Under the pieces are notes generated by a model. The model was not told the origin of the DNA and ran no database searches. It saw only the letters and a list, made by a program, of their open reading frames with translations. The position numbers and the translations under genes are program-made. A stretch of 64,000 bases of DNA, taken from Croceicoccus estronivorus. Lineage in GTDB: Bacteria; Pseudomonadota; Alphaproteobacteria; Sphingomonadales; Sphingomonadaceae. Positions 14,980-64,000 of this stretch are shown here, piece after piece (positions within the stretch are counted from its first letter, which is position 1; every line of letters starts with the position of its first letter). The stretch spans positions 62,001 to 126,000 of the forward strand of contig NZ_JRQQ01000003.1 of NCBI RefSeq assembly GCF_001625325.1. The letters run 5' to 3'.

Positions 14980-15013
14980 GTGTCTGACCTCTTCCAATTG
15001 GGTTGATCTGATC

Positions 15014-15040
15014 TTGGCACTCTCGACATGAGAGTGCCAG
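15014..15040 (-). promoter_or_regulatory. CIRCE operator (HrcA binding site)
   Basis: TTGGCACTC (15014-15022), nine spacer bases, then GAGTGCCAG (15032-15040). This is one mismatch per arm from the CIRCE consensus TTAGCACTC-N9-GAGTGCTAA. Its place about 35 bases before groES indicates heat-shock control by the HrcA repressor; hrcA itself is not in the window. Confidence 0.93.
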
Positions 15041-15222
15041 CGGCGGGCATATGGTAGGGGTGCCAGGCAGCGTCAAGAGACGGGCAGCACATTTTTTTGC
15101 GGCATCGTATGTGCCGACCGGGATTGCGGCTCGTCACGCGGTTGGGCTACCGCACGGATGGTCGCAGTGGTCCTGACGGGTTAGGAAGGGCCGCTCCGGT
15201 GCAAATGGAAAGGCAGGATAAC

Positions 15223-15750
15223 ATGAACGTGAGTCGGAACTGGCGTCGGGCGCCCTGGTTGGCCCTTCTTCCTCTCGTGCTGGCTGGCTGCGGAGGTGGG
15301 GAAAGCCGGCAGGAACCGGCAGCTTCCGAAAACGCAGAGCCCACGGCGGATACGGCTACCGCTATTGGCGAAACGGCTGAAGAACCGGCGGACGTGTCCG
15401 CGCAAGCAGGCGGATCGGAGACGGCCTCAGCAGAACAGGCGGCTCCGAAAGTGGCCGCGACTCAACCGCCACCGGCATTCGCGCAATGCCGTAGCTGTCA
15501 CTCGGTGGAACCGGGCAGGCAGATGGTGGGGCCGAGCCTGGCGGGCATCTTCGGGACCAAGGCTGGCGACGTTGCGGGCTACAATTTCAGTGCCGCGATG
15601 AAGGAATCGGGTCTGGTCTGGGACGAGGCCACGCTCGACACGTATCTTCAGGCTCCGCGCGAAACGATCCCCGGCACCAAGATGATCTTTCCGGGTTTGA
15701 AGGACGAAGCGAAGCGCCAGGCGGTGATTGCCTATCTGAAAACGATCTGA
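15223..15750 (+). CDS. cytochrome c family lipoprotein
   Basis: A 175-residue membrane-anchored class I cytochrome c. Seen: a signal peptide with the lipobox LVLAGCGGG (lipid-bearing Cys about 23), a roughly 60-residue Ala/Glu/Pro-rich linker, then the haem motif CRSCH, GPSLAGIFG, and the axial Met in PGTKMIFPG, ending in VIAYLKTI. The cytochrome domain resembles cytochrome c2/c550 electron carriers, tethered to the membrane by the linker. I start at the ATG at 15223, preceded by AGGATAAC; frames further upstream lack a signal peptide. It stands alone; its electron partner cannot be told from the context. Confidence 0.88.
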   Translation: MNVSRNWRRAPWLALLPLVLAGCGGGESRQEPAASENAEPTADTATAIGETAEEPADVSAQAGGSETASAEQAAPKVAATQPPPAFAQCRSCHSVEPGRQMVGPSLAGIFGTKAGDVAGYNFSAAMKESGLVWDEATLDTYLQAPRETIPGTKMIFPGLKDEAKRQAVIAYLKTI

Positions 15751-49683: not shown

Positions 49684-50643
49684 TCAGGCGGCGTTGGTGC
49701 TGGTTCCGAAGCGACCGTGCTTGCGGTAGCGTAGCATCCAGCGATCAAGGAACAATTCCAGCGGGCGCGGGGCAATGCCCAGCGCCTGCAGGCCTGGCAA
49801 CTGGCCTGACGGTACATTCCCGGCCTTCAGCAGCTTCCACTGATCGGTACTCAGCGGTGCGCCTGGCAGCCAGCCGGTCAACGCCGCGATTGCGCCTGAC
49901 ACGGCATCGGGCAATTCCATGAACATGCGTTCGCGCCCTTGTGAGGACGCGATCATCCGGTTCAGCTTCGCCATATCATACGCTTCGGGCCCGGCAATTT
50001 CGTAGGTCTTGCTGCCATGTTTGGTCGGATCGACCAGGGCTTCAACTATCGCCCGGGCCGCATCGTCCACATGCAGGGGCTGGATTTTCGCGGTGGGGGC
50101 AAAAACGGGCATGACGGGCAGGGCCGCAATCAATCCGGCGAACATGTTGATGAAATGATCGTCCTCCCCGAACAGGATGGAAGGACGCAGGATGGTTGCC
50201 TTGGGGAAGGCCGCGCGCACGGCCTTTTCGCCATCGGCTTTGGTCCGGGCATAGCGGACGTCCGATTCGCCATCCGCACCGATCGCCGAAATATGAACGA
50301 ATGCGCCTGCACCGGCTTGCGCTGCCGCTTGTGCTGCGTTTCCTGCACCATGAGCGTGAACGGCGTCGAGATCGCCGTCAAAAGTGCCTGCCAGGTAAAC
50401 GGCGGCGTCTGCTCCGTTCATTAGCGGGAAGATGCTGGCCGGTTTGGCCACATCGCACCGGACAAATTGAATCTGTCCCAGCTTGGCGAGAGGTTTCAGG
50501 CGGAAACCGCGTTCGGGATGGCGTGAAGCGATGCGCAGCCTTGCGCCACGAGCCAACAGTTCTTGAGCGACATGCGAACCGAGCATGCCGCTGCCACCCA
50601 GAAGCACTACCAGTTTGCCGTCCAGCGGGTCCGTCTTTGCCAT
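49684..50643 (-). CDS. NDUFA9-like NAD(P)-binding reductase
   Basis: A 319-residue atypical short-chain dehydrogenase of the complex I NDUFA9 group, which in alphaproteobacteria is thought to serve as an electron-carrying or assembly-associated subunit. Seen: the nucleotide-binding LVVLLGGSGMLGSHVAQELLARG, the ARTKADGEKAVRAAFPKATILRPSILFGEDD segment with the family's YxxxK shifted (RYARTKADGE), and a C-terminal LELFLDRWMLRYRKHGRF. No nuo genes are near. The ATG at 50643 begins conserved sequence; upstream codons are unlikely. Confidence 0.85.
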   Translation of the reverse strand: MAKTDPLDGKLVVLLGGSGMLGSHVAQELLARGARLRIASRHPERGFRLKPLAKLGQIQFVRCDVAKPASIFPLMNGADAAVYLAGTFDGDLDAVHAHGAGNAAQAAAQAGAGAFVHISAIGADGESDVRYARTKADGEKAVRAAFPKATILRPSILFGEDDHFINMFAGLIAALPVMPVFAPTAKIQPLHVDDAARAIVEALVDPTKHGSKTYEIAGPEAYDMAKLNRMIASSQGRERMFMELPDAVSGAIAALTGWLPGAPLSTDQWKLLKAGNVPSGQLPGLQALGIAPRPLELFLDRWMLRYRKHGRFGTSTNAA

Positions 50644-50835
50644 AGTTATGCAGGTCCAGCCTGTGATCGAAGTTGTAGAGTAGGGCACCGCCATGCCGCA
50701 AGCTGCGGCACATCGCAAGGCGTGCCTTGCACAGTGTTTTCGCCTTGCGTGCGAGAAGCGTTGACAAGCGTACCGGATGGGCGCTATCGGCCCGCCCCTA
50801 CCCGCCGCACAGCATCCGATGACTGCGCGGCCCGT

Positions 50836-50922
50836 GCCCAGATGGCGGAATTGGTAGACGCACCAGCTTCAGGTGCTGGCGCTCGCAAGGGCGTGGAGGT
50901 TCGAGTCCTCTTCTGGGCACCA
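50836..50922 (+). tRNA. tRNA-Leu (CAG anticodon)
   Basis: Acceptor arms GCCCAGA (50836-50842) and TCTGGGC (50912-50918) pair. The D-loop contains GGAATTGGTAGACGC. The anticodon loop CTTCAGGT gives CAG. A long variable arm, as expected for tRNA-Leu, precedes the T-arm GGAGGTTCGAGTCCTC, and CCA is encoded. It is the apparent integration site of the downstream element. Confidence 0.95.
50895..50922. other. probable attachment site (attL) in tRNA-Leu 3' end
   Basis: The T-arm and acceptor end of tRNA-Leu, directly before a P4-type integrase. Such elements integrate into tRNA 3' ends and recreate the tRNA. The far copy of this repeat would lie beyond the window, so the exact att core is inferred. 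Confidence 0.55.
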
Positions 50923-50927
50923 CTACT

Positions 50928-50955
50928 GTCTCTGGCGACGTCCAGAGACGTCCAG
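50928..50955. repeat. inverted and direct repeats beside the att site
   Basis: GTCTCTGG (50928-50935) and CCAGAGAC (50942-50949) form a perfect inverted repeat, and GACGTCCAG occurs twice (50937-50945 and 50947-50955). Repeats of this kind next to an att core can be arm-type binding sites for the integrase or excisionase; this use is inferred. Confidence 0.5.
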
Positions 50956-51099
50956 TAAGCGGCTGGTTTTACAGCATTTCTTGACCCAGAATCGCCAGAC
51001 ACCGTCCGGCGAAATCCGGCTAAGGGCAACAGCAGCGACCACAAATTGTTGCTCTTTTTGTTGCCCTCGGATCGACCCGGCCTTGCTGGGAAAACGACC

Positions 51100-52329
51100 A
51101 TGCTGACCTACATCCAGATCAATGCCGCCAAGCCGAAAGCGAAGGCTTGGAACCTTTCCGATTCTCAGGGCCTCTACCTCGTCATCCAGCCCAACGGCTC
51201 GAAGCTATGGCGCTTCAACTACCGTTTTCTGGACAAACAGAAGAAGCTTCATCTCGGAGGGTGGCCAACCATAAGCCTCGCGGAGGCGCGTGTACGGCGC
51301 GACGAAGCCAAGAAGAAGATTGCTGAGGGGATTGATCCTGCGCTTGAAAAGAAGCGCGCGCGGATCGCTGCCAAATATGCTGCGGCAAATACCTTCGAGG
51401 CGGTCGCGCAGGAATGGCTCGTCAAATGCGAGCGGGACGGCCTCGCGCCGGTGACCGTCGACAAGATCCGCTGGCTGCTCGCCAAGGCGTACCCAGTGAT
51501 CGGCACCATCCCCATCGCGCAAATCACACCGCATGAAGCGCTCGCCGTCTTGCGCAAGGTCGAGGCTACCGGAGCCTATGAAAGCGCTCGGCGCATGCGG
51601 AGCGTCCTGAGCCGCGTCTTCCGCTATGGCGTCGCGACAGTGCGATGCGACAAGGATGTCGCAGCCGATTTGCGGGGGGCAATCGCCGCGCCGAAGGTCA
51701 AGCACTTCGCCGCCATCACCAAGCCCTCCGAAGTGGGGGCCCTATTGCGGGCCATCGACGGATATACCGGGCACAAGGTGACGGTAATGGCCATGCGCCT
51801 GTCTCCGCACGTTCTACTGCGCCCTGGCGAGCTCAGGCAGGCCGAATGGTCCGACATCGACTTCGATGAAGCCATCTGGTTCATCCCCGCCGAACGGATG
51901 AAAATGCGCAGGCCCCACCGTGTGCCACTGTCACGACAGGTGATCGCGATGCTGAAGGAACTGCACGAGCACACGCATTGGTGGAAATATCTTTTCCCCT
52001 GCCTGGGCAGGCCACGAAAGGCGATGTCCGAGAATGCGGTAAACCAAGGTTTGCGTCGGCTCGGCTACACCACAAACGAGATGACGGCGCATGGCTTCCG
52101 GGCAATGGCCGCCACCCTTCTCAATGAGATGGGCGAATGGAACCCCGACGCGATCGAGCGGCAACTCGCGCATGTCGATACCAACCAAGTGCGGCGGGCC
52201 TACGCCCGCGGTGAATATTGGGACGAGCGTGTGCAGATGATGCAGCGCTGGTCGGACTATCTCGACGAACTGCGCGACGGCGGCAAAATTCTCCGGCCCA
52301 CCTTCCCGGCGGCACGACGCGCGTCCTAA
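51100..52329 (+). CDS. P4-type tyrosine integrase
   Basis: A 409-residue site-specific recombinase that integrates and excises the element. Seen: an N-terminal DUF4102-type domain (WNLSDSQGLYLVIQPNGSKLWRFNYRF, about 1-90), a core-binding domain, and the catalytic domain with Arg in LLRPGELRQAEW, HGFR (HxxR), and His-Tyr in RQLAHVDTNQVRRAYAR. The ATG at 51100 begins conserved sequence; upstream in-frame codons are unlikely. It lies about 180 bases after the tRNA-Leu gene, with the direction typical of such islands, and is followed by a hairpin. Codon use is slightly less GC-rich than the backbone genes, by eye. Confidence 0.94.
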   Translation: MLTYIQINAAKPKAKAWNLSDSQGLYLVIQPNGSKLWRFNYRFLDKQKKLHLGGWPTISLAEARVRRDEAKKKIAEGIDPALEKKRARIAAKYAAANTFEAVAQEWLVKCERDGLAPVTVDKIRWLLAKAYPVIGTIPIAQITPHEALAVLRKVEATGAYESARRMRSVLSRVFRYGVATVRCDKDVAADLRGAIAAPKVKHFAAITKPSEVGALLRAIDGYTGHKVTVMAMRLSPHVLLRPGELRQAEWSDIDFDEAIWFIPAERMKMRRPHRVPLSRQVIAMLKELHEHTHWWKYLFPCLGRPRKAMSENAVNQGLRRLGYTTNEMTAHGFRAMAATLLNEMGEWNPDAIERQLAHVDTNQVRRAYARGEYWDERVQMMQRWSDYLDELRDGGKILRPTFPAARRAS

Positions 52330-52342
52330 ATCACACACCGCC

Positions 52343-52373
52343 ACGCGCTGGCGGTCGCTGACCGCCAGCGCGT
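52343..52373. terminator. 14-bp stem hairpin after the integrase
   Basis: ACGCGCTGGCGGTC (52343-52356) pairs perfectly with GACCGCCAGCGCGT (52360-52373) around GCT. No T-run follows, only TTC. It probably ends or slows integrase transcription. Confidence 0.55.
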
Positions 52374-52411
52374 TCAATGGTCCGCATCAAGGCTAACGAC
52401 TGATTGTGGGA

Positions 52412-53981
52412 CAGGCCGTGTAAAAACGTGTTTGCGGAATATGCCACAGGATTTTGGAGCGACGCGAAGGTTGGGTGTTAACTCTCAGGCCCTGATTGCC
52501 GCGATCATCGCCGGGACGCCGAGGATGGCGACCAGTCTTTTGAAGTTATAAGCGAGGATATGGAGGCTGGCCTCCGTTCTGACGTGCTTGAGTGTCTTCA
52601 TTTGAAAGTGCGTCGAGCCCATCCAGGATTTCAGCGTGCCGAACGGATGCTCCACCGTCTGTCGACGGATCCGCATCGCCTCTGGCGCACGATCCAGGCG
52701 CCGCTCCATCGCTTCGACGACTGCTTCATGTTCCCATCTTCTGACCCGCCGTTCCTTGCCGGTCGTGCATTGGTCATGGAGCGCGCACGTCTGGCAGTTC
52801 GAGCTCCAGTAACTATGTGTCGTCAGGCCGTCCTCGATCGACGTGTAACGATAGGTCAGATCTTCGCCAGCGGGGCATCGATAGGCGTTTTCCTGCTCCA
52901 GATAGATGAAGTCCGGTTTGCCAAAGCGGCCTTGTGCCTTTGCCCCGGAGGTCAGCGGTCTGGGCACAAAGGCGGTGACGCCTATGCTCTCGCAGGTCCG
53001 GATATCCTCGCCCTTAAAATAGCCTTTGTCGGCAATGGCATCCAAAGCCTCGACGCCCATAGCTGTCTTAGCTTGCGCCGCCATGGAGGAAAGCTGGCCG
53101 CGGTCATTGCCGATGTTCAGCAGTTCGTGCGCGACAATGAGGTGGTGCTCGGCATCGACGGCCGCCTGCAGATTATAGCCGACAATGCTCGTGCCGCGGC
53201 CCGCACTCGTCATGGCGCGTGCGTCGGGATCGGTCAGCGACACCTGCTGATCCGGCGCATTGCGAACTTCCTCTTCACGCGCGGCAAGATCGCGCATTTG
53301 CGCACGCAGCCGGGCGATCTTCTCCGTCAATCGCTTCGCCTTCGGCTCGGCAATGTCGCTTTCCTCGCGATCGGTACGATCAAGCGCGTCGAGATACCGA
53401 TCGATATTGTCCTGCACCTGCTTCATCCGCGAGGCGACCTTTGCAGCGGTGTAATTCTTGTCGCGGTTGTTGAACGCCTTCATCTTGCTGCCGTCGATCG
53501 CGACAACCGCCCGCGTGAACAGTCCCAATTGCCGGCACAAAACAATGAACTGGCTACACACGCCCCGGATCGCAGCGCCATTGGCCTGGCGGAAGTTGGC
53601 GATCGTTTTGAAGTCGGGCGCCAATCGCCCGGTCAGCCACATCAATTCCACGTTGCGCTGTGCTTCACGCTCGAGCCGCCGGCTCGACTGGGTCCGATTC
53701 AGATAGCCATAAAGGTAGATTTTGAGCATCGTCGCCGGATGGTAGGCGGGACGGCCGGTCTCGGCCGGCGTCATTCCCCCGAACTCCAGCGCCTTCAGAT
53801 CCAGCGCATCGATGAACGCCTCGACCGCTCGAACCGGGTTATCTGCCGACACGTAATCATCGAGCGATGCAGGCAGCAGATAATCCTGCCGGCGGTCTTC
53901 ACCTTGGATGAAACGACCCATTCCAAAGCCTCCCGAAACGCGAGAGAACCATAGCATATTCCGGCGTTTTTACACAGCCTC
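52412..53981 (-). mobile_element. IS1182-type insertion sequence
   Basis: The ends share the inverted repeat AGGC[C/T]GTGTAAAAACG (left from 52413; right, read inward on the minus strand, from about 53980), followed on both sides by CGGAATATGC-like sequence. A transposase gene fills the interior. GGGA at 52408-52411 and 53982-53985 could be a 4-base target duplication; this is tentative because the outermost base of the ends differs. Confidence 0.8.
52485..53921 (-). CDS. IS1182 family transposase
   Basis: A 478-residue DDE transposase. Seen: FIQGEDRRQDYLLPASLDDYVSADNPVRAVEAFIDALDL, the first catalytic region with VVAIDGSKMKAFNNRDKNY (Asp), the second with LDAIADKGYFKGEDI (Asp), and a C-terminal QTVEHPFGTLKSWMG (Glu), plus a Cys-rich insert (CQTCALHDQCTTG). 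All catalytic residues appear present, so it may be active. The ATG at 53921 gives the family start MGRFIQG; the frame extends 12 codons further. It reads away from the reverse transcriptase gene. Confidence 0.95.
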   Translation of the reverse strand: MGRFIQGEDRRQDYLLPASLDDYVSADNPVRAVEAFIDALDLKALEFGGMTPAETGRPAYHPATMLKIYLYGYLNRTQSSRRLEREAQRNVELMWLTGRLAPDFKTIANFRQANGAAIRGVCSQFIVLCRQLGLFTRAVVAIDGSKMKAFNNRDKNYTAAKVASRMKQVQDNIDRYLDALDRTDREESDIAEPKAKRLTEKIARLRAQMRDLAAREEEVRNAPDQQVSLTDPDARAMTSAGRGTSIVGYNLQAAVDAEHHLIVAHELLNIGNDRGQLSSMAAQAKTAMGVEALDAIADKGYFKGEDIRTCESIGVTAFVPRPLTSGAKAQGRFGKPDFIYLEQENAYRCPAGEDLTYRYTSIEDGLTTHSYWSSNCQTCALHDQCTTGKERRVRRWEHEAVVEAMERRLDRAPEAMRIRRQTVEHPFGTLKSWMGSTHFQMKTLKHVRTEASLHILAYNFKRLVAILGVPAMIAAIRA

Positions 53982-54138
53982 GGGACAAAGCCGTCGTTCT
54001 CGGCGAGCGACAACTATTTGCAACTTGTCGACACAAACGCTCGCCTCGCGGTTCGGCGCGATATACCACGGTAAGAGGTGCTGGTCCGACCAGTGAACCC
54101 TCACGCTGGGGCGCGCAGGGCATAGAACAGGTGAGCAA

Positions 54139-57100
54139 GTGCAACGGCTGATCCCAACGCTGGACCAGGTTTCCCAAGAATACGTGCTCGTTCAGGCATG
54201 GAAGAAGACCGCGTCGTACATCAGGTACCACAACTGGTTCTCCGATACTCTGGAGTTGGACCGCACAGCTGCCGATCTTCCGAGGTTCATCTCTCGACTC
54301 TCGCAGCGATTGCGTTCGGGTCAATATGAAACCGAGGAACTGAAGCTAGTTCCCGCGCCGAAGAGCCAACGCTGGCAAGTTGACGCCGAAGGGCTCTGGA
54401 GGCCTGAAAAATCGGGCCCCACCAAGATCCGACCGCTTGCTCACGTCGCTCTATCCGATCAGGTCGCGGCCACGGCTCTCATGCTCTGCCTCAGCGAAAG
54501 AGTCGAAAGTGCGCAAGGCGACCCAACTGGCAGCTTCGAATCCCCCGATGTGCGCAGGTCGGTCATGTCCTACGGAAACCGTCTCTTCTGCGATAGGGCT
54601 GGAGAAGGAGGCGGTCTCATCCACCGCTGGGGCTCCTCCAAACTTTACCGAGCCTATTTCCAAGATTATCGGTCCTTTCTCCAACGGCCAGAGGCAGTCT
54701 CCGCAGCACTTAGCGCGGATGACCGAGTCTTAATCGTTCAGACTGACCTCAAACAGTTCTACGACCGAGTGACACCAGACTTGCTCCTCTCCAAGGTGCG
54801 CTTACTCCAGACGCCCGATGACGACGGGGCGTTCTTCGACCTAGCAGGCAATGTTCTCAATTGGTCCTGGGAGGAAAAGGACGAGCGTCAATTCGCCCGC
54901 TTCAAGCAGCGTGCAGGCATTCCCGAGTTCGATGGCGTCGCTCTTCCCCAAGGCTTGGTTGCAGCAGGCTTCTTTTCGAACGTCGTGTTGCTGGATTTTG
55001 ATCGGACCGTCATTAGCCAGATCGGCCGAGAGGTCACCAATGGTGTGTGGCTCCGGGATGCCTGTCGATACGTCGATGACATCAGGCTGACCATCACCAC
55101 GGCACCAGGGGTTGATCCGAAAGAAGCTCAGGCGCGCGTAATGGCGTGGCTTGGGCAAGTCCTGACGGGGATCTGTCCGGGCTTGGAATTTGCTCCGGAG
55201 AAGACGTCGACCGCGTCCGTGGGCGGCGAGCAGATGCCGCTAGTCCGCCAATCCCGAAAAATGGAGCGAATCCAGACTGCGATTTCCGGCGGGTTCGATG
55301 CGGGCGGTGGCGAGGAGGTGATCCAGGCGATCGAAGCTCTCGTCCGGTCCCAGCTAACGATCAACGAGGCCGAAGGAACATCGACCCCTCCGGGCCTAAG
55401 AGCGGTGCCTGATGTCAAGGACGAGACTGTCGGTCGTTTCGCTGCTGGTCGATTCAGAAAAACCTTTCGCTCACTCAGGCCGCTCCTCGACGATCGACCT
55501 TACATGGAAATCGCTGAATTCGGGGAGGAAACCTTTCGTCGCACCCGGCTCTCGCAGTCGGAACTGGACGAAGAAGCACGTGCCTTCGCGCTCGTCTTAA
55601 TCGAGCGGTGGATACGCGATCCTTCCAACGTGCGGCTACTGCGCGTCGCGCTCGACCTCTGGCCGTCCCGCCAACTGCTCGAGGAGGTACTGAAGCTCTT
55701 CGAGCCCTATCTTTGCGGTCAAATCAGGGCGGTGACCAGCCGACAAGTCGCGTACTACTGCCTCGCCGAGATATTTCGAGCCGGGGCGACCGAGACGGGC
55801 TTCATCGACGATCCAGAGTGCCTTCCCGCTGGGATCAACCTCACGGCCTACAGATCTCTGCTTCTGGATGCTGCGATCCGAGTGGCCACGGGCGCGGCCG
55901 AACGCGTCCCGTGGTATCTCGCGCAACAGGCACTGCTATACATCGCGGTCCATGACCCCCGGGCTATCCAAGCCCAAGGGGCTCCACGGACCAATCGATC
56001 CTATTGGCGCTTTCTTTCATTTCTGACAGGAGAGCGCGACATCTCGTCTGACCGTGAATTTGCAATAGCCGCGGTGGTTAGCCGTAGGTCGTTTCTTTCG
56101 AAGGACCAAGCCGTGAACCTAGTCGGTCGGATGCTGACGCCAGAGCGGTTCGCGGAGGTGGCTGCTCGAGACATCGAATTCGCCCGCGACCTCTTTCGCG
56201 CGGTCGACCGAAAACTCACCGTTCCGGCGGGCATCGCGGAGGATCTGGGGATCGCCGAATGGTCTAACTCGACGGAAATGCACTCACTACAATCCTATGT
56301 ACAGGACAAGGGCCCCCTGAATCCGCTGCGAAATGAGATTGGCGTCCTTAGCTTCGCAGAGAAATTCATCGCGCATATCGAGCAAGGGAATTTGCCTGAA
56401 GTCGTGACGCCTTCGACGACGCAGATAGCTGTGCGGCAGGTAGGAAACTATGTCCGCGTCGAGCAGGTAATCTTCAGAGCGGCACAGACCACGCCGACCT
56501 ACCGCTCTATTTATACCGCCCCCTCTTGGGCGCCGGAATCTCAACGCTGGCGCTTTCAGCTCGGTTATCTCCTTCGCTTCATCCTCACGGCCAGAATAGA
56601 CTTCAGCCTCCCGGTCAGGTCGCCATCTTGGAAGGAAGGCGAGCCCATCTACCGGCCCACGAGGGGTCACTGGTTTCAGCGGCAATACGGCTTCTACAAT
56701 GGGCATGAGGCCTTCGGGGACGACTGGCTTCCTATCTCGCAGTCCACTCAGGATCTCCTCTTCGATCTGCTCATCTGGCCCGGCTGCCGTACAAGCAGCC
56801 CGGATGTTGACCAATTGTCGCTAGCTGAAACGGCCGCTCGAATCCGCGCTGCGCTCGTCGAAGCCGACGCGGCAATCGGCCCGGCAACAGGCACCTTGAT
56901 GCTCAAGGTTGATGCGCCGATACCAGGCACCACATCAAAGGGCCGCCCGCTTCGGGCGTGCGTCGTCCAGTCGGTCATGCCAGAAGCCGAGGATTTCTCG
57001 GCCGCCGATCTGGAGATGAACTCGCCGGCGCTTCGACGAAAACACCGTAAACATCTGTCCACTGCGTTGGCCGCGGTCGAGAAGATGCTGGATCTACGCG

Positions 57101-57834
57101 AGACCCATAAACCAGCAAGCAAGCGTCTCGACTGGCTTATCTTGCCGGAACTGTCTGTCCACCCAGATGACGTTGCCACCCACCTCGTGCCGTTCGCGCG
57201 GGCGTTCAAGACCGCGATTCTGGTCGGCATGGCCTATGAACAAGTCGTCCCGGGACAGCCGCTGATCAATTCGGCCCTATGGATTATCCCGAGGATGGTG
57301 CAAGGTATGGGCCTGCAAACGGTGATTAGGCGGCAGGGAAAGCAGCACCTCTCCCCAATGGAGCAGAAATACGTCAAACCGGTCGAACTGATCACCGGAT
57401 TCCGCCCGTGCCAGTGGCTCGTGGGGTATGAATGGTCAAACAATCCGGCGAATGACGCGCTGTGGCTAACGGCGTCCATCTGTTACGACGCAACTGACCT
57501 GAAGTTAGCGAGCGATCTTCGTGATCGCTCGGACGTGTTTGCAATCCCAGCGCTGAACCTGGACGTCGGCACCTTCGATCAGATGGCTCAGGCGCTACAC
57601 TATCACATGTTCCAGCTAGTGCTGATCGCGAACAACGGAGCTTATGGGGGCAGCAATGCCCACGTACCGAAGGGGGAAGCCTATCAACGCCAAGTGTTCC
57701 ACACCCATGGTCAGCCCCAGGCAACAATTTCCTTTTTCGAGATCGACGACATCGAAGGCATGAAGCAACGGCACCAGCTGGGCGCTGGGAAGGAAGATGG
57801 GTGGAAGTATCCGCCTGCCGGCTGTCAGATTTGA
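54139..57834 (+). CDS. reverse transcriptase-nitrilase fusion (DRT type 1-like)
   Basis: A 1231-residue protein with an N-terminal reverse transcriptase and a C-terminal nitrilase-superfamily domain, the layout of UG1 / defence-associated reverse transcriptase type 1, reported to protect E. coli against phage. Seen: RT motif A QTDLKQFYD (Asp about 203), the LPQG motif B segment (GVALPQGLVAAGFFSN), and motif C YVDD at about 311-314; a middle region of about 600 residues without recognisable motifs; then nitrilase motifs LPELS (Glu about 1004), GKQHLSP (Lys about 1068) and SICYDA (Cys about 1115). Both active sites look intact. It begins with GTG after AGGTGAG. It is not a group II intron RT: no maturase domain or intron RNA is evident. 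It sits between an IS and the conjugation genes as cargo. Confidence 0.88.
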   Translation: MQRLIPTLDQVSQEYVLVQAWKKTASYIRYHNWFSDTLELDRTAADLPRFISRLSQRLRSGQYETEELKLVPAPKSQRWQVDAEGLWRPEKSGPTKIRPLAHVALSDQVAATALMLCLSERVESAQGDPTGSFESPDVRRSVMSYGNRLFCDRAGEGGGLIHRWGSSKLYRAYFQDYRSFLQRPEAVSAALSADDRVLIVQTDLKQFYDRVTPDLLLSKVRLLQTPDDDGAFFDLAGNVLNWSWEEKDERQFARFKQRAGIPEFDGVALPQGLVAAGFFSNVVLLDFDRTVISQIGREVTNGVWLRDACRYVDDIRLTITTAPGVDPKEAQARVMAWLGQVLTGICPGLEFAPEKTSTASVGGEQMPLVRQSRKMERIQTAISGGFDAGGGEEVIQAIEALVRSQLTINEAEGTSTPPGLRAVPDVKDETVGRFAAGRFRKTFRSLRPLLDDRPYMEIAEFGEETFRRTRLSQSELDEEARAFALVLIERWIRDPSNVRLLRVALDLWPSRQLLEEVLKLFEPYLCGQIRAVTSRQVAYYCLAEIFRAGATETGFIDDPECLPAGINLTAYRSLLLDAAIRVATGAAERVPWYLAQQALLYIAVHDPRAIQAQGAPRTNRSYWRFLSFLTGERDISSDREFAIAAVVSRRSFLSKDQAVNLVGRMLTPERFAEVAARDIEFARDLFRAVDRKLTVPAGIAEDLGIAEWSNSTEMHSLQSYVQDKGPLNPLRNEIGVLSFAEKFIAHIEQGNLPEVVTPSTTQIAVRQVGNYVRVEQVIFRAAQTTPTYRSIYTAPSWAPESQRWRFQLGYLLRFILTARIDFSLPVRSPSWKEGEPIYRPTRGHWFQRQYGFYNGHEAFGDDWLPISQSTQDLLFDLLIWPGCRTSSPDVDQLSLAETAARIRAALVEADAAIGPATGTLMLKVDAPIPGTTSKGRPLRACVVQSVMPEAEDFSAADLEMNSPALRRKHRKHLSTALAAVEKMLDLRETHKPASKRLDWLILPELSVHPDDVATHLVPFARAFKTAILVGMAYEQVVPGQPLINSALWIIPRMVQGMGLQTVIRRQGKQHLSPMEQKYVKPVELITGFRPCQWLVGYEWSNNPANDALWLTASICYDATDLKLASDLRDRSDVFAIPALNLDVGTFDQMAQALHYHMFQLVLIANNGAYGGSNAHVPKGEAYQRQVFHTHGQPQATISFFEIDDIEGMKQRHQLGAGKEDGWKYPPAGCQI

Positions 57835-58166
57835 GTATTCTCCGGCATAAGCACGGCACGTTCTGTCACATCTCCATCAAATGACATCCGCGGCGTCATG
57901 CCGGACAGGACTTTATCCAGAGATGGTACGAACGACCAGCTCTGGTCCATCGCCGTCAGACCTAACGAGGCCAGCATTATCTGCCGATTGCGGCATTCAG
58001 CCTTCCAATCCGATTTCGATAATGCGTGATTTGGCGCGCCTAGGATGGACCAAATGCCGCAGAAGCAAAATTTGGCTGGAGCCGAACACTGCTCATGAGA
58101 CGGATGCCGATCCAACGGCTCAGCGCATAGCATTTGTCGAAGACCAAGGCCCCGTCGCTTCGTCGG
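57835..58166. other. intergenic stretch between RT gene and trb cluster
   Basis: About 330 bases. A minus-strand frame (57825-58133) could encode about 100 residues ending in SFDGDVTERAVLMPENTQI, but it has no motif, a weak start and overlaps the end of the reverse transcriptase gene. I see no terminator after the RT gene and no RNA structure of note. Confidence 0.5.
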
Positions 58167-58355
58167 CTAGGTCTGGGTCAGCTTCCTAAGGCTCTGGAAC
58201 TGGATCAACGTCGCTCGCCCGACCTTGATGGTTTCAAGGTCCCCGGACTGGATCAATTCGTAGATCCGCGAGCGACTGAGACCCGTGATGCGCACCGCCG
58301 TGGCGACACGGACCGTCAGCGGCTGCAATGCCTGCTCTGCCATGTGGTCCATCAT
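58167..58355 (-). CDS. helix-turn-helix (AlpA/excisionase-like) protein
   Basis: A 62-residue DNA-binding protein with an excisionase-type winged helix-turn-helix. Seen: LTVRVATAVRITGLSRSRIYELIQSGDLETIKVGRATLIQFQSLRKL, the DNA-binding helix pair and wing of the family. Its ATG overlaps the stop of the DUF2274 gene (ATGA), so it is coupled to the end of the trb operon, where small HTH genes are common. It may act as an excisionase or a regulator of transfer. Confidence 0.83.
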   Translation of the reverse strand: MMDHMAEQALQPLTVRVATAVRITGLSRSRIYELIQSGDLETIKVGRATLIQFQSLRKLTQT

Positions 58356-58582
58356 GTACGCCCCCTCTGCGCTGCCTCGCGAGCCCGGACGAAAACCCGG
58401 TCGCTCTCGAGGAAGGACGCCAGCATCGCCGGAATCAGCTCGGCGATGGGCTCTTCGCTGCCATAGGCCGCCGCATAGATGGCGGCATATTCACGCAAAG
58501 CGCCTTGCAGGTCGGGCGTGATGGTAATCGCAAGCTTCACCGGCGTGCGGTCCGGCAGTTTGGCAAGCTTCAGTTCGGCCAT
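58352..58582 (-). CDS. DUF2274 family protein
   Basis: A 76-residue protein of the DUF2274 family, which is found almost only at the end of trb conjugation clusters. Seen: LKLAKLPDRTPVKLAITITPDLQGALREYAAIYAAAYGSEEPIAELIPAMLASFLESDRVF, which looks like a ribbon-helix-helix-type fold. Role unknown. It starts two bases after trbI and overlaps the next gene by four bases. Confidence 0.88.
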   Translation of the reverse strand: MAELKLAKLPDRTPVKLAITITPDLQGALREYAAIYAAAYGSEEPIAELIPAMLASFLESDRVFVRAREAAQRGRT

Positions 58583-58584
58583 GG

Positions 58585-59781
58585 CTATCCTCCGATATTG
58601 TCGCGCCAGGGCGCGAGGATGAGGTCCCGGCTCACCAGCAGCCGTACTAGTGCACCAGGGCGGATCGTGATGGTCGGCTGGACGTCGAGGTTTCGGGACG
58701 TCAACTGGTCGCCAGCGCGCGATACGTTCTGATGCGTGGACTCGCGGATCGCCTGGACGAGGTCGCTCTCGCCCTTGATCGACAGTTCCGAACCCACCCC
58801 AAGCAAGGTCGCCATGGCGACGCCCTTGAGCAGTGCCCAGCTATGGAAATCGACCTTGTCCGCGAGACCCGCATAGCCCGACGGATCGGTCGCAGGCATG
58901 TTGTCGAGGCGCAGCGAGCTGCCGTCGGGCAAGATGATCCTTTGCCAGATTACCAGCGCGCGGCGCTGGCCGAAGGCGACGACGCTGTCATACTTGCCGA
59001 CCAGCCGGGCTCCTTGCGGCACCAGCAGGAAACGACCGGTTGCGCTATCGAACACGTTCTGTGTGACCTGGGCAGTGACCAGGCCTGGCAGGTCCGAATT
59101 GATACCCGTGATGAGGCTGGCCGCGATGACGCTTCCCGCGGACAGCATGTAGGGAGAAGCCGGGGCCATCAGCACGTGCGGATTGGCATCGCCCCCCGGG
59201 TCCGCCCGCTCGGCGAATGCCGTCTTGCGATCCTGCGGGGCCGCCGCTGCTGCCGGGACGAGCGGTTGGCCGGCCGAGTTGGCTTCGGTTGCCGATGGCG
59301 CGGAATCGCCAGGCCTCGTCTGGACCATGAGCCCCGACTGACGCGCAGCCTTGAACTCCGCGAGGCGCGCCATCCTCTCTGCCTCGGCAGTGTCGGCGCC
59401 TGTCCGGGCGGTCGCAGCGCCGTCCACCGGCGAGAGCTGTTGCTGCTGCGCGCGCAGGATCGGTCGGCCAAGGTCGCCTGGCAATGGCGGCCCCAGCCTT
59501 GGAGCATCGCCGTAGCTTGACGGCAAGGCCGCAAGTGCGTCGGTCGAGGTCTTGCCCAACGGCTGCGCCAACTCGCTTTCCTGGGCTTGCCGGTGGAAGA
59601 TTTGGGGCTTTAGCGCCATCCAGGCAATGCCCATCAGGCTGGCTGAGCCCAGTGCGGCAATGCCAATGATCGCACCCCGCCGAAACCGGATGGCCCGTGC
59701 GGGACTCGCACGCAGGACCAGCGTCTCGGGATCGACCTTGGCGGCTGGCGTAGCCGGCTGCCCGGCGTTTTCGGCCGTCAT
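58585..59781 (-). CDS. trbI: conjugal transfer protein TrbI (VirB10-like)
   Basis: A 398-residue inner-membrane protein bridging both membranes in the mating-pair apparatus. Seen: a short cytoplasmic N-terminus, one transmembrane helix (about 34-55, GAIIGIAALGSASLMGIAWMAL), a long Pro/Gln/Ala-rich periplasmic linker, and the VirB10 C-terminal domain (SAGSVIAASLITGINSDLPGLVTAQVTQNVFDSATGRFLLVPQGARLVGKYD). ATG overlaps the trbG stop as ATGA. The frame runs further upstream but through trbG. Confidence 0.95.
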   Translation of the reverse strand: MTAENAGQPATPAAKVDPETLVLRASPARAIRFRRGAIIGIAALGSASLMGIAWMALKPQIFHRQAQESELAQPLGKTSTDALAALPSSYGDAPRLGPPLPGDLGRPILRAQQQQLSPVDGAATARTGADTAEAERMARLAEFKAARQSGLMVQTRPGDSAPSATEANSAGQPLVPAAAAAPQDRKTAFAERADPGGDANPHVLMAPASPYMLSAGSVIAASLITGINSDLPGLVTAQVTQNVFDSATGRFLLVPQGARLVGKYDSVVAFGQRRALVIWQRIILPDGSSLRLDNMPATDPSGYAGLADKVDFHSWALLKGVAMATLLGVGSELSIKGESDLVQAIRESTHQNVSRAGDQLTSRNLDVQPTITIRPGALVRLLVSRDLILAPWRDNIGG

Positions 59782-60611
59782 GCGCCCCTCCGATGCTTCG
59801 CCCGGGCCCCGCGGGTGATCCGGACGACCTGCTGCTTCTTGAGACCGAGCCGCAGCTCGGCCGCATCGAACAGTCGGTCGATGATGTAGTAGCGCTCGCG
59901 CACCCGGTAGTTGGCGAGTTCGGCCTTTCCGTCGGCCCCAAGCACGAACAATGGCGGCGCCTCGCCCTGCGACAGGCCGGAGGGAAACTCGATATATGTC
60001 TTCTGTCCGTCGTCGAACGCACGCAGCGGTCGCCATGCAGGACGGTCCCCTGACAAGGCATAGTCGAAGCGCAACTGGTCCACATCGAGGCCCGCTGCGA
60101 CCGGCGTCGCGGACCGGGCAGCTTCCGCCTGCCGCTTGAGCGCAAGCAGTTCGTCCTGGGGATAGGTCCAGCTTATCGCCGCCATTGGCGTTCGTGCCGT
60201 GCTGGCGAGGCGCAGGTGGTACGTCCGCCGGTCGGTGGTAATGACGAGGTTGGTGATGAGCCCAGCGTTGAACGGCTTTACAAGGATGTGCGTTCGCCGG
60301 GTATCGCCGCTCCCGCTGGTCGTATCGCCGATAACCCAGCGCGCCGTGTCACCGCTCGCCACGGCCACGAGGGCCTCGCCCGGCTGCAATGCGATGTCGG
60401 TCACTGCACCTGGCGCGGTGTAGCCTTGGAAGATCATCCCCTCGGAAAAGGCATAGACCTGCGTTGCGTTGATGAATCCCTGCGCCGCCGGTTGCTCGGT
60501 TGCGCTGCGATTGGCGACGGCCACTCGGCGCAGGGGCGATGCACCTTCGTGGGCCTGGGCCGGTACGCAGGCAAGCGCGACAATGGGGAAAAGCATGGAG
60601 CGGATGATCAT
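59778..60611 (-). CDS. trbG: conjugal transfer protein TrbG (VirB9-like)
   Basis: A 277-residue periplasmic or outer-membrane-associated component of the transfer channel. Seen: a signal peptide MIIRSMLFPIVALACVPAQAH, then VirB9-type beta-rich sequence (VYAFSEGMIFQGYTAPGAVTDIALQPGEALVAV, HILVKPFNAGLITNLVITTDRRTYHLRL, FIEFPSGL-like YIEFPSGLSQGEAPPLFVL). The ATG at 60611 overlaps the trbF stop (ATGA). Upstream frame is trbF in another phase. Confidence 0.95.
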   Translation of the reverse strand: MIIRSMLFPIVALACVPAQAHEGASPLRRVAVANRSATEQPAAQGFINATQVYAFSEGMIFQGYTAPGAVTDIALQPGEALVAVASGDTARWVIGDTTSGSGDTRRTHILVKPFNAGLITNLVITTDRRTYHLRLASTARTPMAAISWTYPQDELLALKRQAEAARSATPVAAGLDVDQLRFDYALSGDRPAWRPLRAFDDGQKTYIEFPSGLSQGEAPPLFVLGADGKAELANYRVRERYYIIDRLFDAAELRLGLKKQQVVRITRGARAKHRRGA

Positions 60612-61423
60612 GGCTGGACCTCCTTGGCGTTCTGGGTGGCAGGTGCCGCTAGGCCGGGATCGAGCGGCGAGCCGAGCGGCAGGTTCGAGGCTGGCGTGGC
60701 CATTGGAACTGGCCTCGAAGGTGATGGGGATTGCGGGTCGCCATCGAGCTCGCGGCTCCAGTCGATCGCGTCGACGTAGATGCCGAGCGGATTGCGGCGG
60801 AGCGTGTCGGCATCGACGGGGGGCTTGGCCACGATGGTGAGGATGGCCGTCCAACGGCTGCTCCCGGCCCGTGAACCGCGCTCGAACACGGTCTCGGTCC
60901 ACTTGACCTGGAACGATGTGTCGGAAGCCCGCACGACGCTGGTGACCTGGACCGATACCGTTCGCTCGCCAATACGTGCGAACGGATCATTGCTGCGGGC
61001 GTAGTCGCCCAGGAACTGGGCCCCGCGCCGTGTCGCAAAATCGTAGGCCTCGAGCCAACCCCGCTTCATCAGGACAGGGTCGAGCGACGCCGAGCGTACG
61101 TTCGTGATGAAGCGGCCAAGGTGCCAGGCGATCTGCGGATCGGTTGGCTGGTAGCCGGCCGACGCCTCGCTAACGGCGCGGGCTTCGCCCAGTCGATCGA
61201 CTTCGACCACATAGGGTACCACCCGGCTCTGCAGGGACTGCCAGACAAGTCCGCCCGACAGGCTTGCGGCGAGGCCGAGGCTCACGAAGGCCGCGAGGCG
61301 CCAGTTGCGTGCCTGCACCCGGGCCGAGCCGATCCGGTCATCCCAGACCTGGCCCGCACGCTGGTATGGCGTCTCCGGAATTGGGGTGCGTCCATAGCGC
61401 TGGACGCTGCGCTTGAAGATCAT
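60608..61423 (-). CDS. trbF: conjugal transfer protein TrbF (VirB8-like)
   Basis: A 271-residue inner-membrane assembly protein of the type IV secretion system. Seen: a start with YGRTPIPETPYQRAGQVWDDRIGSARVQARNWR, typical of TrbF, one transmembrane helix (about 43-62), then a VirB8 NTF2-like periplasmic domain with VVPYVVEVDRLGEAR and NPLGIYVDAIDWSREL. It has a Pro-rich tail. It lies three bases after trbL and overlaps trbG. Confidence 0.95.
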   Translation of the reverse strand: MIFKRSVQRYGRTPIPETPYQRAGQVWDDRIGSARVQARNWRLAAFVSLGLAASLSGGLVWQSLQSRVVPYVVEVDRLGEARAVSEASAGYQPTDPQIAWHLGRFITNVRSASLDPVLMKRGWLEAYDFATRRGAQFLGDYARSNDPFARIGERTVSVQVTSVVRASDTSFQVKWTETVFERGSRAGSSRWTAILTIVAKPPVDADTLRRNPLGIYVDAIDWSRELDGDPQSPSPSRPVPMATPASNLPLGSPLDPGLAAPATQNAKEVQP

Positions 61424-61426
61424 GGC

Positions 61427-62734
61427 CTAGTCGTTCCTTTCCTTGATGTCGGGCGTGGCGGCTCCGCCGCCTCGGTCGCCCTGTTGAAGGGCATGAAGGG
61501 CCAGCTGCCGGCGATGCCGCGAGGACTGCTCGGCCCGCATGGCGCGCGCCCAGGCGGGCGCCGCCTCGTTGTCGCCTCCTGCCTGGGCCTGTGCAGGGTT
61601 CGTTTTCGTGTCGTGGAGCGCATTCCAGGCGGCCTGGCGTCCGTTCGACGCAGCTTCGCCGAGGCCCAGTGCATCCGATGCCTTGGCCCGAACTGCATTG
61701 CCTGCGGCTCTCCCTACCCCCGCAAGGCCAGCGCTAACCGAGGAGTTGCCCGCCGCCTCCTGGCCAAGGCCATAGGCCGTGCTTGCTGCCGAACCCATGG
61801 CCGTGCCGGAACGGACCGCTCCCAGCGCTGCCCCGCCGAGCGCGCGCGCACCGCCCACGGCCGCGCCGCCTGCCACCATGGTGATGCCCGCCGCCCCAGC
61901 CGCCGTGCCGAAGGCTGCACCAGCGCCAAGCTGGGGAGCGCCCGAGACAAGGCCGCTTGCGATCGAGGGGCCGAAGATTCCGAGGCCGAACAGGGACAGG
62001 CTCGCCAGCACAAGGCTCATGGCCTGACCAATGTCTGGCTCCTGGCCCTGGAGGGCAGCCGTGAACTCGGCGAAGAAATTGGATCCGATGCCGACGATCA
62101 CCGCGAGCACCATCACCTTGATGCCCGAGGAGACCACGTTGCCGAGAACGCGCTCGGCGAGGAAGCTGGTTCGATTCCAAAGGGCGAACGGCACGAGGAT
62201 GAAGCCAGCAAGGCTCGTCAGCTTGAACTCGATGATCGTGACGAACATCTGCACCGCGAGTATGAAGAAGGCGATGATCACCAGGGCCCACGCGAACAGC
62301 AGCACCATGATCGTCAGGAAATTGTCGAAGAAGGTTGTGAAACCGACCATCTCGCTTGCCTGGTTGAGCAGCGGCCAGGCTGCTTCGAACCCGGTCCCTG
62401 CGAGCCGCCCCGGCTTGAGCAAGTCACCGGCAACGAGCGTGCCCCCGCCAGCGGTGAGCCCTGCCTGCGCGAAAGACCGGAAGATGATGTCGGCGAGCGT
62501 GGAGAAGCTGTTCAGGATGAATGCGAACGTGCCGATGTAGAGGATCTTGCGGAGGAAGCGGCCGATGACATTGTCCTCGCCGCCCATCGCCCAGAACAGC
62601 CCGGCGAGCGTGATATCGATGCCGATGAGCACGGACGTCAGGAAGGCCACGTCCGGGCCGAGCAGCCCGAACCCGCTGTCGATGTAGGTGATGAACGACT
62701 GCATGAAGCGGTCGATGACATTGAGGTCGTTCAC
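61427..62734 (-). CDS. trbL: conjugal transfer protein TrbL (VirB6-like)
   Basis: A 435-residue polytopic inner-membrane protein forming part of the channel. Seen: MNDLNVIDRFMQSFITYIDSGFGLLGPDVAFL, at least six hydrophobic helices in the first 280 residues, a Gly/Ala-rich region (about 285-350), and a hydrophilic C-terminus with many Ala, Arg and Gln, all TrbL traits. It follows trbJ with a gap of about 130 bases that contains a GC hairpin. Confidence 0.94.
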   Translation of the reverse strand: MNDLNVIDRFMQSFITYIDSGFGLLGPDVAFLTSVLIGIDITLAGLFWAMGGEDNVIGRFLRKILYIGTFAFILNSFSTLADIIFRSFAQAGLTAGGGTLVAGDLLKPGRLAGTGFEAAWPLLNQASEMVGFTTFFDNFLTIMVLLFAWALVIIAFFILAVQMFVTIIEFKLTSLAGFILVPFALWNRTSFLAERVLGNVVSSGIKVMVLAVIVGIGSNFFAEFTAALQGQEPDIGQAMSLVLASLSLFGLGIFGPSIASGLVSGAPQLGAGAAFGTAAGAAGITMVAGGAAVGGARALGGAALGAVRSGTAMGSAASTAYGLGQEAAGNSSVSAGLAGVGRAAGNAVRAKASDALGLGEAASNGRQAAWNALHDTKTNPAQAQAGGDNEAAPAWARAMRAEQSSRHRRQLALHALQQGDRGGGAATPDIKERND

Positions 62735-62764
62735 GGGCGTGGTCTTCCTGGATGGATTGGATGC

Positions 62765-62800
62765 CGCGGGGCGTGACTGGGGGTGGCCACGCCCCGCGGG
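62765..62800. repeat. 12-bp GC-rich inverted repeat between trbJ and trbL
   Basis: CCGCGGGGCGTG (62765-62776) pairs perfectly with CACGCCCCGCGG (62789-62800). No T-run follows on either strand. It occupies the place where trbK lies in many trb clusters and may tune expression of the downstream genes. Confidence 0.6.
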
Positions 62801-62863
62801 CGGCGGCAGGCGCGGGAGGCTCGCCTTGCCGCCATGGCCGGGTCGGCTTTCTGCCGCGTGGGG

Positions 62864-63610
62864 CTACTGCGGCGTGTAGGCCGACCCGGAACCGAGGAAC
62901 TTCTTCGTTGCGGCGCGCGCCTCGGCCCCTTGCGTCGCCCGGCGGGCCTGTTCCTGGGCCTCGGCCCGGAACTGGGCGGCCATCATCTGCTGGATCTGGA
63001 ACTGCTGCTTTGCCGTCAGGGCGAGCAACTGGTTAGTCGCCTGCTGCGCCTGCAGTGAGCCCTCGGCGCCCTGGCTCCGCGAGACGATGTCGGCGAGCGC
63101 CTGGGTGTCGTCCCGCACGTTCTCGACGACCTGCGCCTGGACCGTCATCGTCTGGCGAAAGGCATCCATGCTGGCCTCGAGCCGGCCGCGGGCGCCCTGC
63201 ACGCGCTGGTCGGTTCGAAGGGCTGTCGCAAAGTCCTGCGGAAACAGCGATCGGAACCGGTCGTCGAGCTGGTCGACCCGAAAATCGATACCCTGGGCCT
63301 GGCCCATGAGGCGATCGATCTGGGCGAGCTTCTGCTGAAGGGCGTCGAGCTGGGGAAAATCGATCCGGGAGAGGTTCTTGCCCATGTTGACCAGCATCTG
63401 CGCCTCGTTCTGGAGTTGCCTGATCTGCTGGTTGACCTGCTGGAGAGTGCGCGCAGCCGTCAGGATGTTCTGGGCGTAGTTGCTCGGGTCGAAGACCGAG
63501 ATCTGTGCCTGGGCGGGCGCTGCGGGCAGGCCGAGTATGGCGCCCGTGACGGAGACCGATGCCAGGGCAAGGCTGCATGCGACGGCATGGGCGGGGGCAG
63601 GGATTCGCAT
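62864..63610 (-). CDS. trbJ: conjugal transfer protein TrbJ (VirB5-like)
   Basis: A 248-residue secreted minor-pilus-type protein. Seen: a signal peptide of about 35 residues ending near AQAQI, then VFDPSNYAQNILTAARTLQQVNQQIRQLQNEAQMLVNMGKNL, the TrbJ hallmark, and a Gln-rich helical body. ATG overlaps the trbE stop by one base (TGATG). Gene order trbE-trbJ-trbL fits; the small trbK entry-exclusion gene is not found between them. Confidence 0.94.
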   Translation of the reverse strand: MRIPAPAHAVACSLALASVSVTGAILGLPAAPAQAQISVFDPSNYAQNILTAARTLQQVNQQIRQLQNEAQMLVNMGKNLSRIDFPQLDALQQKLAQIDRLMGQAQGIDFRVDQLDDRFRSLFPQDFATALRTDQRVQGARGRLEASMDAFRQTMTVQAQVVENVRDDTQALADIVSRSQGAEGSLQAQQATNQLLALTAKQQFQIQQMMAAQFRAEAQEQARRATQGAEARAATKKFLGSGSAYTPQ

Positions 63611-64000
63611 CAGGATTCTCCTTCTTCGGGGGACAAGGATTCGGGTGCCTGGGCCAGGAGGTCAGCCGCCCAGTCGAGGCCAGCGGTGCGTAGGAAGCGG
63701 GCCGCGAAGTGGTCAGCGCCGCCCGCCTCTAGCAGCGCGTCGATGCGGGCTTGGGTCGCGGGATAAGAGGCAGCGCAGAATGCAAGCGCCACAGGGCCGA
63801 GCCCCAGCTCGAACAGGCGGTTCCCACGGGCAGACTGGAGGTAGTACTGGCGCTTGGGCGTTGCCCTCGCGACCAGCTCGACCTGCCGGTCATTGAGGCC
63901 GAATTGCTCGTAGATGCTCCGGGATTGCGGTTCGATCGCCCGGTCGTTGGGGAGCAGGATGCGTTGCGGGCAGCTTTCGATGATGGCGGGTGCGATCGAC
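63610..64000 (-). CDS. trbE: conjugal transfer ATPase TrbE (VirB4-like), C-terminal part
   Basis: Only the last about 129 codons are in the window; the gene continues past the right edge. Seen: SCPQRILLPNDRAIEPQ, YEQFGLNDRQVELVARATPKRQYYLQSARGNRLFELGLGPVALAFCA, the end of the VirB4/TrbE ATPase domain. The Walker motifs lie outside. It is upstream of trbJ on the same strand, the expected order. Confidence 0.93.
   Translation of the reverse strand, partial: SIAPAIIESCPQRILLPNDRAIEPQSRSIYEQFGLNDRQVELVARATPKRQYYLQSARGNRLFELGLGPVALAFCAASYPATQARIDALLEAGGADHFAARFLRTAGLDWAADLLAQAPESLSPEEGES

What the first reader, a model, noticed from the sequence alone, without database searches (positions are those of the whole stretch)
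54139..57834. Reverse transcriptase-nitrilase fusion, a probable DRT type 1 anti-phage system, inside a conjugative element
One open frame joins RT motifs (QTDLKQFYD, LPQG, YVDD) to a complete nitrilase Glu-Lys-Cys triad after a long uncharacterised middle. Established: UG1-class RTs with C-terminal nitrilase domains are described as defence-associated (DRT type 1). What the nitrilase acts on, and what the RT copies, is not known. The gene sits alone between an IS and a trb cluster, so it appears to move between hosts by conjugation. The middle 600 residues are an open question.
Basis: partly seen in the sequence, partly recalled or inferred. Interest (0 to 1): 0.85.

Follow-up and report, generated by a model that had tools for sequence, protein, structure and literature searches.

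The report
DRT1 antiphage reverse transcriptase, conjugative element
The gene is a recognisable relative of DRT1, a known bacterial suicide-type antivirus protein that joins a DNA-making enzyme to a nitrilase, here carried next to conjugation genes; it is a new example of a known thing, from a branch distant from the protein studied in detail.

Summary
Window 54139-57834 (+) is one 1231-residue frame holding an RT, an all-helical middle and a nitrilase. It is DRT1 (UG1): the PADLOC Drt1a model matches residues 3-1229 at 1291.5 bits, and a profile of its relatives matches PDB 9YFD, the DRT1 cryo-EM structure, almost end to end. The residues behind this are present here: YVDD 311-314, serine 383, E1004/K1068/C1115 and the K1223-x3-A1227 tail, each kept in 36 or 37 of 37 aligned proteins. 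What the nitrilase cuts is still unknown. The gene belongs to a clade deeply split from that of the solved protein; the partner gene drt1b was not found in its 32 loci. It lies between a tRNA-Leu/integrase/IS1182 end and a trb conjugation cluster; no right attachment site was found. Verdict: new member of a known kind; modest interest.

The parts
54139..57834 (+). drt1 gene (UG1 reverse transcriptase - helical repeat - nitrilase), 1231 aa, GTG start
54139..55233 (+). RT domain, about residues 1-365; catalytic YVDD at 55069-55080 (its two Asp equal D324/D325 of 9YFD), LPQG at 54943-54954
   Evidence: domain limits approximate
55285..55287 (+). Ser383, aligned with priming serine S402 of the solved DRT1 once a 2-residue insertion in that protein is allowed; invariant in 37 of 37 relatives
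   Evidence: function from PMC13275509
55234..56895 (+). Priming linker and mostly helical middle, about residues 366-919; alpha-helical repeat domain in the solved relative
   Evidence: PMC13275509
56896..57744 (+). Nitrilase domain, about residues 920-1202: Glu1004 (57148-57150), Lys1068 (57340-57342), Glu1075 (57361-57363), Cys1115 (57481-57483)
57745..57831 (+). C-terminal tail with K1223-x3-A1227 (57805-57819), equivalent of the lid residues K1219/A1223
54079..54138 (+). Leader of about 52-60 bases shared in DNA with relatives L034, L035, L036; holds the probable ribosome site
52485..53957 (-). IS1182-family transposase; probable terminal inverted repeats 52413-52428 / 53965-53980
51046..52329 (+). 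Tyrosine integrase (P4-type by recall) 123 bases beyond tRNA-Leu
50836..50922 (+). tRNA-Leu(CAG), possible integration site
58352..63610 (-). DUF2274, TrbI, CagX/TrbG, VirB8/TrbF, TrbL and a gene with a sub-threshold DUF4141 match (TrbJ by position, recalled); on the same contig past the window follow TrbE, a TrbB-type ATPase and a TraG-type coupling protein

Best explanation
A single-gene DRT1 abortive-infection system carried as cargo beside the integrase end of a probable tRNA-Leu conjugative element. Likely working: the RT domain, using no template, adds an A-rich semirandom DNA strand to Ser383 of its own polypeptide; the DNA-bearing protein forms tetramers through its nitrilase domains, which then stack into filaments; in the filament the C-terminal K-x3-A tail of a neighbour closes the nitrilase pocket, so the enzyme is assembled but asleep; a phage product disturbs the DNA-bound filament, the lid opens, and the nitrilase acts on an essential amide- or amine-bearing molecule and stops the cell before phages are released. 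Shown here: the architecture, the residues and the nitrilase fold of a model. Shown by others for a distant relative: synthesis, filament, need for both active sites. Inferred: that this protein does the same, and (also in that paper) the steps from trigger to cell death. Unknown according to that paper: the nitrilase substrate and the full trigger.
For: Drt1a model 1291.5 bits over residues 3-1229; next different RT families UG5-nitrilase 125.5 (through the nitrilase part) and UG21 37.0. Sequence match to 9YFD in three stretches (E 8.9e-112) and by profile over positions 3-1237 of 1238, 888 bits. S383 aligned with S402; D203, YVDD, S383, E1004, K1068, E1075 and C1115 in 37 of 37, K1223 and A1227 in 36 of 37; the 9YFD tail reads K1219-T-Q-P-A1223. 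AlphaFold2 model: the C-terminal part matches amidases and formamidases at Z about 16, among them a formamidase titled by its Cys-Glu-Lys triad. No Rfam family beside the gene but the tRNA and no flank conserved beyond about 60 bases upstream in the 8-9 relatives aligned, as expected of an RT without an RNA template. Mechanism: PMC13275509 (abstract, main text sections and discussion read).
Against: The studied protein is distant: two members of its clade are 28 and 29% identical to the window protein, and the two clades are about 3.4 changes per column apart. E333, whose change was damaging in the studied protein, falls on Ala322 here (alignment extended by one residue). No sigma-70-type consensus promoter was found at 53900-58300, an IS lies just upstream, and expression is unknown. 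The C-terminal part of the model has only moderate confidence and the tail is below pLDDT 50. No experiment was done.
Confidence: 0.8

Rival explanations
1. A DRT1 protein in family, but with a changed trigger or effector chemistry: the deep clade of the window keeps self-priming and the lid, yet answers to other phage signals or acts on another substrate.
For: Deep split from the clade of the solved protein; no drt1b found in the 32 loci of the window's clade; an inter-tetramer residue (E333) not kept.
Against: The catalytic, priming and tail residues compared are the same in both clades but for one row each at K1223 and A1227; the paper says that most drt1 loci lack drt1b and that its own DRT1 works without it.
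Confidence: 0.2
2. A remnant: the gene is silent or decaying after the IS1182 insertion.
For: The IS1182 gene ends 181 bases before the start codon; no consensus promoter near the gene; a relative on a Sphingopyxis plasmid is split in two.
Against: Full-length open frame with the checked catalytic residues intact; the leader shared with relatives is intact; 89% identity to L034.
Confidence: 0.1
3. Another nitrilase-bearing RT class (UG5) or a group II intron or retron RT.
For: The RT part matches group II intron RTs best in the rows shown from solved structures; TIGR04416 at 35.1 bits.
Against: TIGR04416 needs 300 bits; UG5-nitrilase scores 125.5 against 1291.5 for Drt1a; 9YFD is the only strong sequence match among solved structures.
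Confidence: 0.01

Closest known systems
DRT1 of PDB 9YFD (Neville et al. 2026, PMC13275509)
   Same: Same domain order and near-equal length (1229 and 1231 aa); YVDD, priming serine, nitrilase Glu/Lys/Cys, K-x3-A tail
   Different: Distant in sequence; the window protein lacks a 2-residue insertion before the serine and E333; it sits in the other deep clade (inferred for 9YFD from its kinship with L080), where drt1b was not found
drt1 + drt1b loci on Vibrio, Pseudoalteromonas and Photobacterium plasmids (L070, L071, L080)
   Same: Same drt1 architecture
   Different: They carry drt1b overlapping drt1 by 4 bases (L070, L071) or 16 bases after it (L080); the window does not
Xanthobacter agilis L034 and Mesorhizobium L036 drt1
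   Same: 89% and 80% identical proteins; L036 also matches the window's trb DNA downstream
   Different: L036 has TIR-APAZ and short pAgo genes upstream instead of an IS; L034 shows no matching trb DNA in its 8 kb downstream flank
UG5-nitrilase RTs
   Same: RT with nitrilase
   Different: Much weaker model score; the paper says S402 is not conserved in other class 3 DRTs

Membership tests
DRT1 (UG1) | RT and nitrilase in one polypeptide matching the Drt1a model | tested here: met
   PDLC03745 1291.5 bits, residues 3-1229, model 5-1176 of 1176
DRT1 (UG1) | RT catalytic YxDD | tested here: met
   YVDD 311-314, 37 of 37
DRT1 (UG1) | Conserved priming serine (S402) | tested here: met
   S383, 37 of 37; aligned with S402 by MAFFT. 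The HMM alignment put S402 two columns away, so this rests on a 2-residue gap that the Photobacterium relative L080 shares with 9YFD
DRT1 (UG1) | Nitrilase catalytic Glu, Lys, Cys and nitrilase fold | tested here: met
   E1004, K1068, C1115, 37 of 37; amidase/formamidase fold Z about 16. Distances within the triad were not measured: no coordinates were available
DRT1 (UG1) | C-terminal lid residues K1219 and A1223 | tested here: met
   9YFD reads K1219-T-Q-P-A1223 and aligns without gaps to the tail of L080; L080 is in the alignment where the window has K1223 and A1227, each kept in 36 of 37 rows
[quoted passage not shown] DNA-dependent tetramers and filaments | not testable with these tools
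   needs purified protein
DRT1 (UG1) | Protection from phages | not testable with these tools
   needs plating assays
DRT1 (UG1) | RT falls in UG1 in a tree of all UG/Abi RTs | not tested
   only model scores were compared; the tree holds DRT1 proteins only
UG5-nitrilase DRT | Best match to the UG5 model | tested here: not met
   125.5 bits against 1291.5 for Drt1a
Group II intron RT | Score above the curated cut-off of TIGR04416 | tested here: not met
   35.1 bits, cut-off 300
Integrative and conjugative element | Integrase beside a tRNA gene | tested here: met
Integrative and conjugative element | Type IV secretion genes and coupling protein | tested here: met
   TrbI, CagX, VirB8, TrbL, TrbE, T2SSE, T4SS-DNA_transf
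Integrative and conjugative element | Relaxase | tested here: inconclusive
   a DUF3363 protein is relaxase-like by recall only
Integrative and conjugative element | Direct repeat of the attachment site at the far end | tested here: inconclusive
   No second copy of the 25-base tRNA end with up to 3 mismatches in the 25-contig assembly; none downstream with 24-mers and 5 mismatches; a shorter or other core is not excluded

The most novel reading that the evidence does not exclude
The window protein stands for a deep lineage of DRT1, distant from the solved one, that lacks the membrane partner Drt1b and keeps the self-primed DNA adduct and the lid, but senses other phage signals or attacks another metabolite; comparing the two lineages would separate the core switch (DNA adduct plus lid) from lineage-specific sensing.
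Probability: 0.2. Interest if true: 0.45.

Novelty: new member of a known kind. Interest (0 to 1): 0.25.

Why it matters
The DRT1 switch residues (priming serine, both active sites, C-terminal tail) are kept across a very deep split, including loci where no drt1b was found. That supports the published mechanism as ancestral and gives a distant second protein for finding the still unknown nitrilase substrate. It also adds a DRT1 carried beside conjugation genes, with other defence genes further along the same contig.

Tried and rejected
An RNA partner or template: no Rfam match but the tRNA in 50500-64000; alignments of upstream flanks (9 loci) and downstream flanks (8 loci) show no block conserved in all beyond the coding ends. 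Rejected as a feature.

A helicase partner: in L040, L041 and L059 a RecD-like helicase of about 1250 residues starts right after drt1, and L058 has a remnant. Tempting because PMC13275509 links DRT1 to the phage helicase Dda. But the protein is PADLOC's single-gene candidate PDC-S68; the 8 plasmid records that hold at least 80% of it are none of the 7 records in which drt1 was found; and no relative was found in the window. Treated as a defence-island neighbour, not as part of the system.

Attachment site: exact 13-mers gave two scattered hits, mismatch searches none apart from the tRNA itself. Host name: a 16S search found none in the assembly, so the host was not identified. DRT1 in phage or virus collections: none by tblastn or by the pattern search, which sees close relatives only. 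The middle domain alone gave no significant solved-structure match (0 of 446 at E 0.001; the best rows, many of them HEAT/armadillo proteins, have E about 0.1 and above). 9YFD is not among the rows shown by the fold search, whose library goes to 8 April 2026; I did not see its release date.

Choice of rows. Of 31 distinct full-length proteins then in hand A1 used 25, A3 (structure job) 22 and A6 (middle job) 20, window included. Left out of the 37-protein counts: L060 (split frame), L061 (cut by contig end), L069 (split gene), L006 (same match figures as L035, taken as a duplicate), L005 (the window itself), L085-L088 (fragments). In the 32/8 division of loci L060, L061 and L069, absent from the tree, were put with the window's clade by identity (47-80%). 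The drt1b model was built from the same three loci that it finds, so those hits are by construction; the test is that it finds no others in 40 loci, some with short flanks (L045 and L061 end near the gene; L004 and L081-L084 hold 1.5 kb on each side).
Full report
What is there. The frame 54139-57834 (+) codes for 1231 residues from a GTG with a ribosome-site-like AGGTGAG before it; three orthologues use ATG at the same codon. Pfam sees only the RT, but PADLOC's Drt1a model covers residues 3-1229 at 1291.5 bits; the next different RT families score 125.5 (UG5-nitrilase) and 37.0 (UG21). A single-sequence search of the PDB finds 9YFD, 'Defense-associated reverse transcriptase 1', at E 8.9e-112 in three stretches; a profile of 25 DRT1 proteins, window included, finds it at 888 bits over profile positions 3-1237 of 1238.

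What is known of that protein. I read the abstract, the main text up to the viral section, the discussion and passages found by term in PMC13275509. It reports that DRT1 makes DNA without a template, primed by serine S402, mostly A; that RT (D324/D325), priming-serine (S402A) and nitrilase (C1116) mutants lose immunity; that the DNA drives tetramers into filaments; that the last 19 residues are swapped between tetramers and close the nitrilase pocket, with K1219 and A1223 essential; that T4 escapers carry mutations in the helicase gene dda, which is needed but not enough to trigger DRT1; and that the nitrilase substrate is unknown. It also says that about 18% of drt1 genes have a drt1b neighbour and that its DRT1 works without one. 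Passages of PMC7699616 give the earlier naming DRT type 1 = UG1 and say that the nitrilase domain is key for defence; [quoted passage not shown]

Test of the residues. In a 37-protein alignment (window included; eight rows from the distant clade) D203, F207, Y311-D314, K355, S383, E1004, K1068, E1075, C1115 and P1226 are in 37 of 37, and K1223 and A1227 in 36 of 37. S383 falls on S402 of 9YFD when the solved protein's two extra residues, shared by the Photobacterium relative L080, are gapped; the HMM alignment set them two columns apart, so this assignment is likely but rests on that gap. The tail of 9YFD reads K1219-T-Q-P-A1223 and aligns without gaps to that of L080, so the K-x3-A of the window is its counterpart. 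E333 of the solved protein, damaging when changed, falls on Ala322 (extended by one residue).

Fold. AlphaFold2 on residues 41-1231 with 22 sequences gave mean pLDDT 73.9 and pTM 0.72; the nitrilase part is mostly at 55-80 and the tail under 50. In the second-look alignment the N-terminal part matches RTs (best Z 17.4, a group II intron RT) and the C-terminal part amidases, formamidases and nitrilases (Z 16.5 and below), including a formamidase titled by its Cys-Glu-Lys triad. Foldseek's best rows are UG15, AbiA, AbiK and DRT4 together with group II and retron RTs, at low whole-chain TM-scores. The middle alone is nearly all helix with one strand pair and has no significant match; many of its best rows are HEAT and armadillo repeats, in line with the alpha-helical repeat domain of the cryo-EM structure.

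Distribution. In a sample of 385 genomes of the class, 49 match the model at E 0.001 or better, but only 3 (own included) over its full length, with E printed as 0; the other rows cover the RT part. In 398 genomes of the phylum, 8 (own included) match at E 1e-60 or better; none of the 18 same-family genomes listed does (370 further genomes without a match are not listed). One genome scan gave 29 loci, the plasmid collection 7 records, 3 of them over at least 80% of the query, phages none. The tree of 37 proteins falls into 29 rows with the window and 8 rows with the Vibrio, Pseudoalteromonas and Photobacterium proteins, 3.4 changes per column apart (the tool flags long branches). 9YFD was not in the tree; its fragment is 50.5% identical to the Photobacterium protein, so I place it in the second group.

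Partners. Drt1b is confirmed by PADLOC in L070, L071 and L080. A model built from those three finds no other copy in 40 loci: 3 of 8 in the second group, 0 of 32 in the window's group (limits of flanks and grouping are told under Tried and rejected). L046 has an RT-associated SbcB gene upstream by PADLOC, and L055 and L056 its close relatives. The window has neither.

The carrier. From the left: tRNA-Leu 50836-50922, integrase 51046-52329, IS1182, drt1, then trb genes on the minus strand running out of the window, followed on the same contig by TrbE, a TrbB-type ATPase, a TraG-type coupling protein, an autoinducer synthase, ArdC and a DUF3363 protein, an RM/defence stretch and a second integrase with an in-frame stop. 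No right attachment site was found. DNA matching drt1 begins 52-60 bases upstream of the start codon in L034-L036 and ends within 50 bases of the stop codon; of 31 loci compared only L036 also matches in the trb genes, at 66-71%. So drt1 looks like a portable single-gene cassette, and this element is one carrier.

Conclusion. For this lineage I tested sequence and a predicted model only. The most likely mechanism is the published one, with the steps marked in Best explanation as shown, shown elsewhere or inferred.

Noticed in passing
L067:5778-7454 (-) (G000:C22): A second defence RT in the same genome, 558 aa, best PADLOC model Drt6 at 508.7 bits, next to an integrase gene at L067:7759-9324.
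   Followed up: partly
L064:3725-16266: Same contig, past the conjugation genes: MzaC (289.5 bits), a weak MzaD match (26.9 bits), a C5 methylase, Vsr, HNH and AbiEi genes, a probable second defence/RM stretch.
   Followed up: partly
L065:2144-3160: Second integrase, 47-48% identical to the first, with an in-frame stop.
   Followed up: partly
L063:9990-10634: LuxI-type autoinducer synthase inside the conjugative region.
   Followed up: no
L041:11761-15522, L059:7992-11753, L040:about 11753-15493: PDC-S68 RecD-like helicase directly after drt1 in three metagenome genomes, remnant in L058; interesting because DRT1 escape in T4 maps to a helicase gene.
   Followed up: partly
L036:4955-7821: TIR-APAZ and short pAgo pair just upstream of drt1 on the Mesorhizobium contig with trb genes.
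   Followed up: no
L081:479-1483 (-): Abi_2 family gene whose frame overlaps the end of a distant drt1 by 4 bases.
   Followed up: no
L069:12001-14394 and L069:21897-23231: On a Sphingopyxis plasmid drt1 is split in two pieces about 7.5 kb apart, with IS genes between.
   Followed up: no
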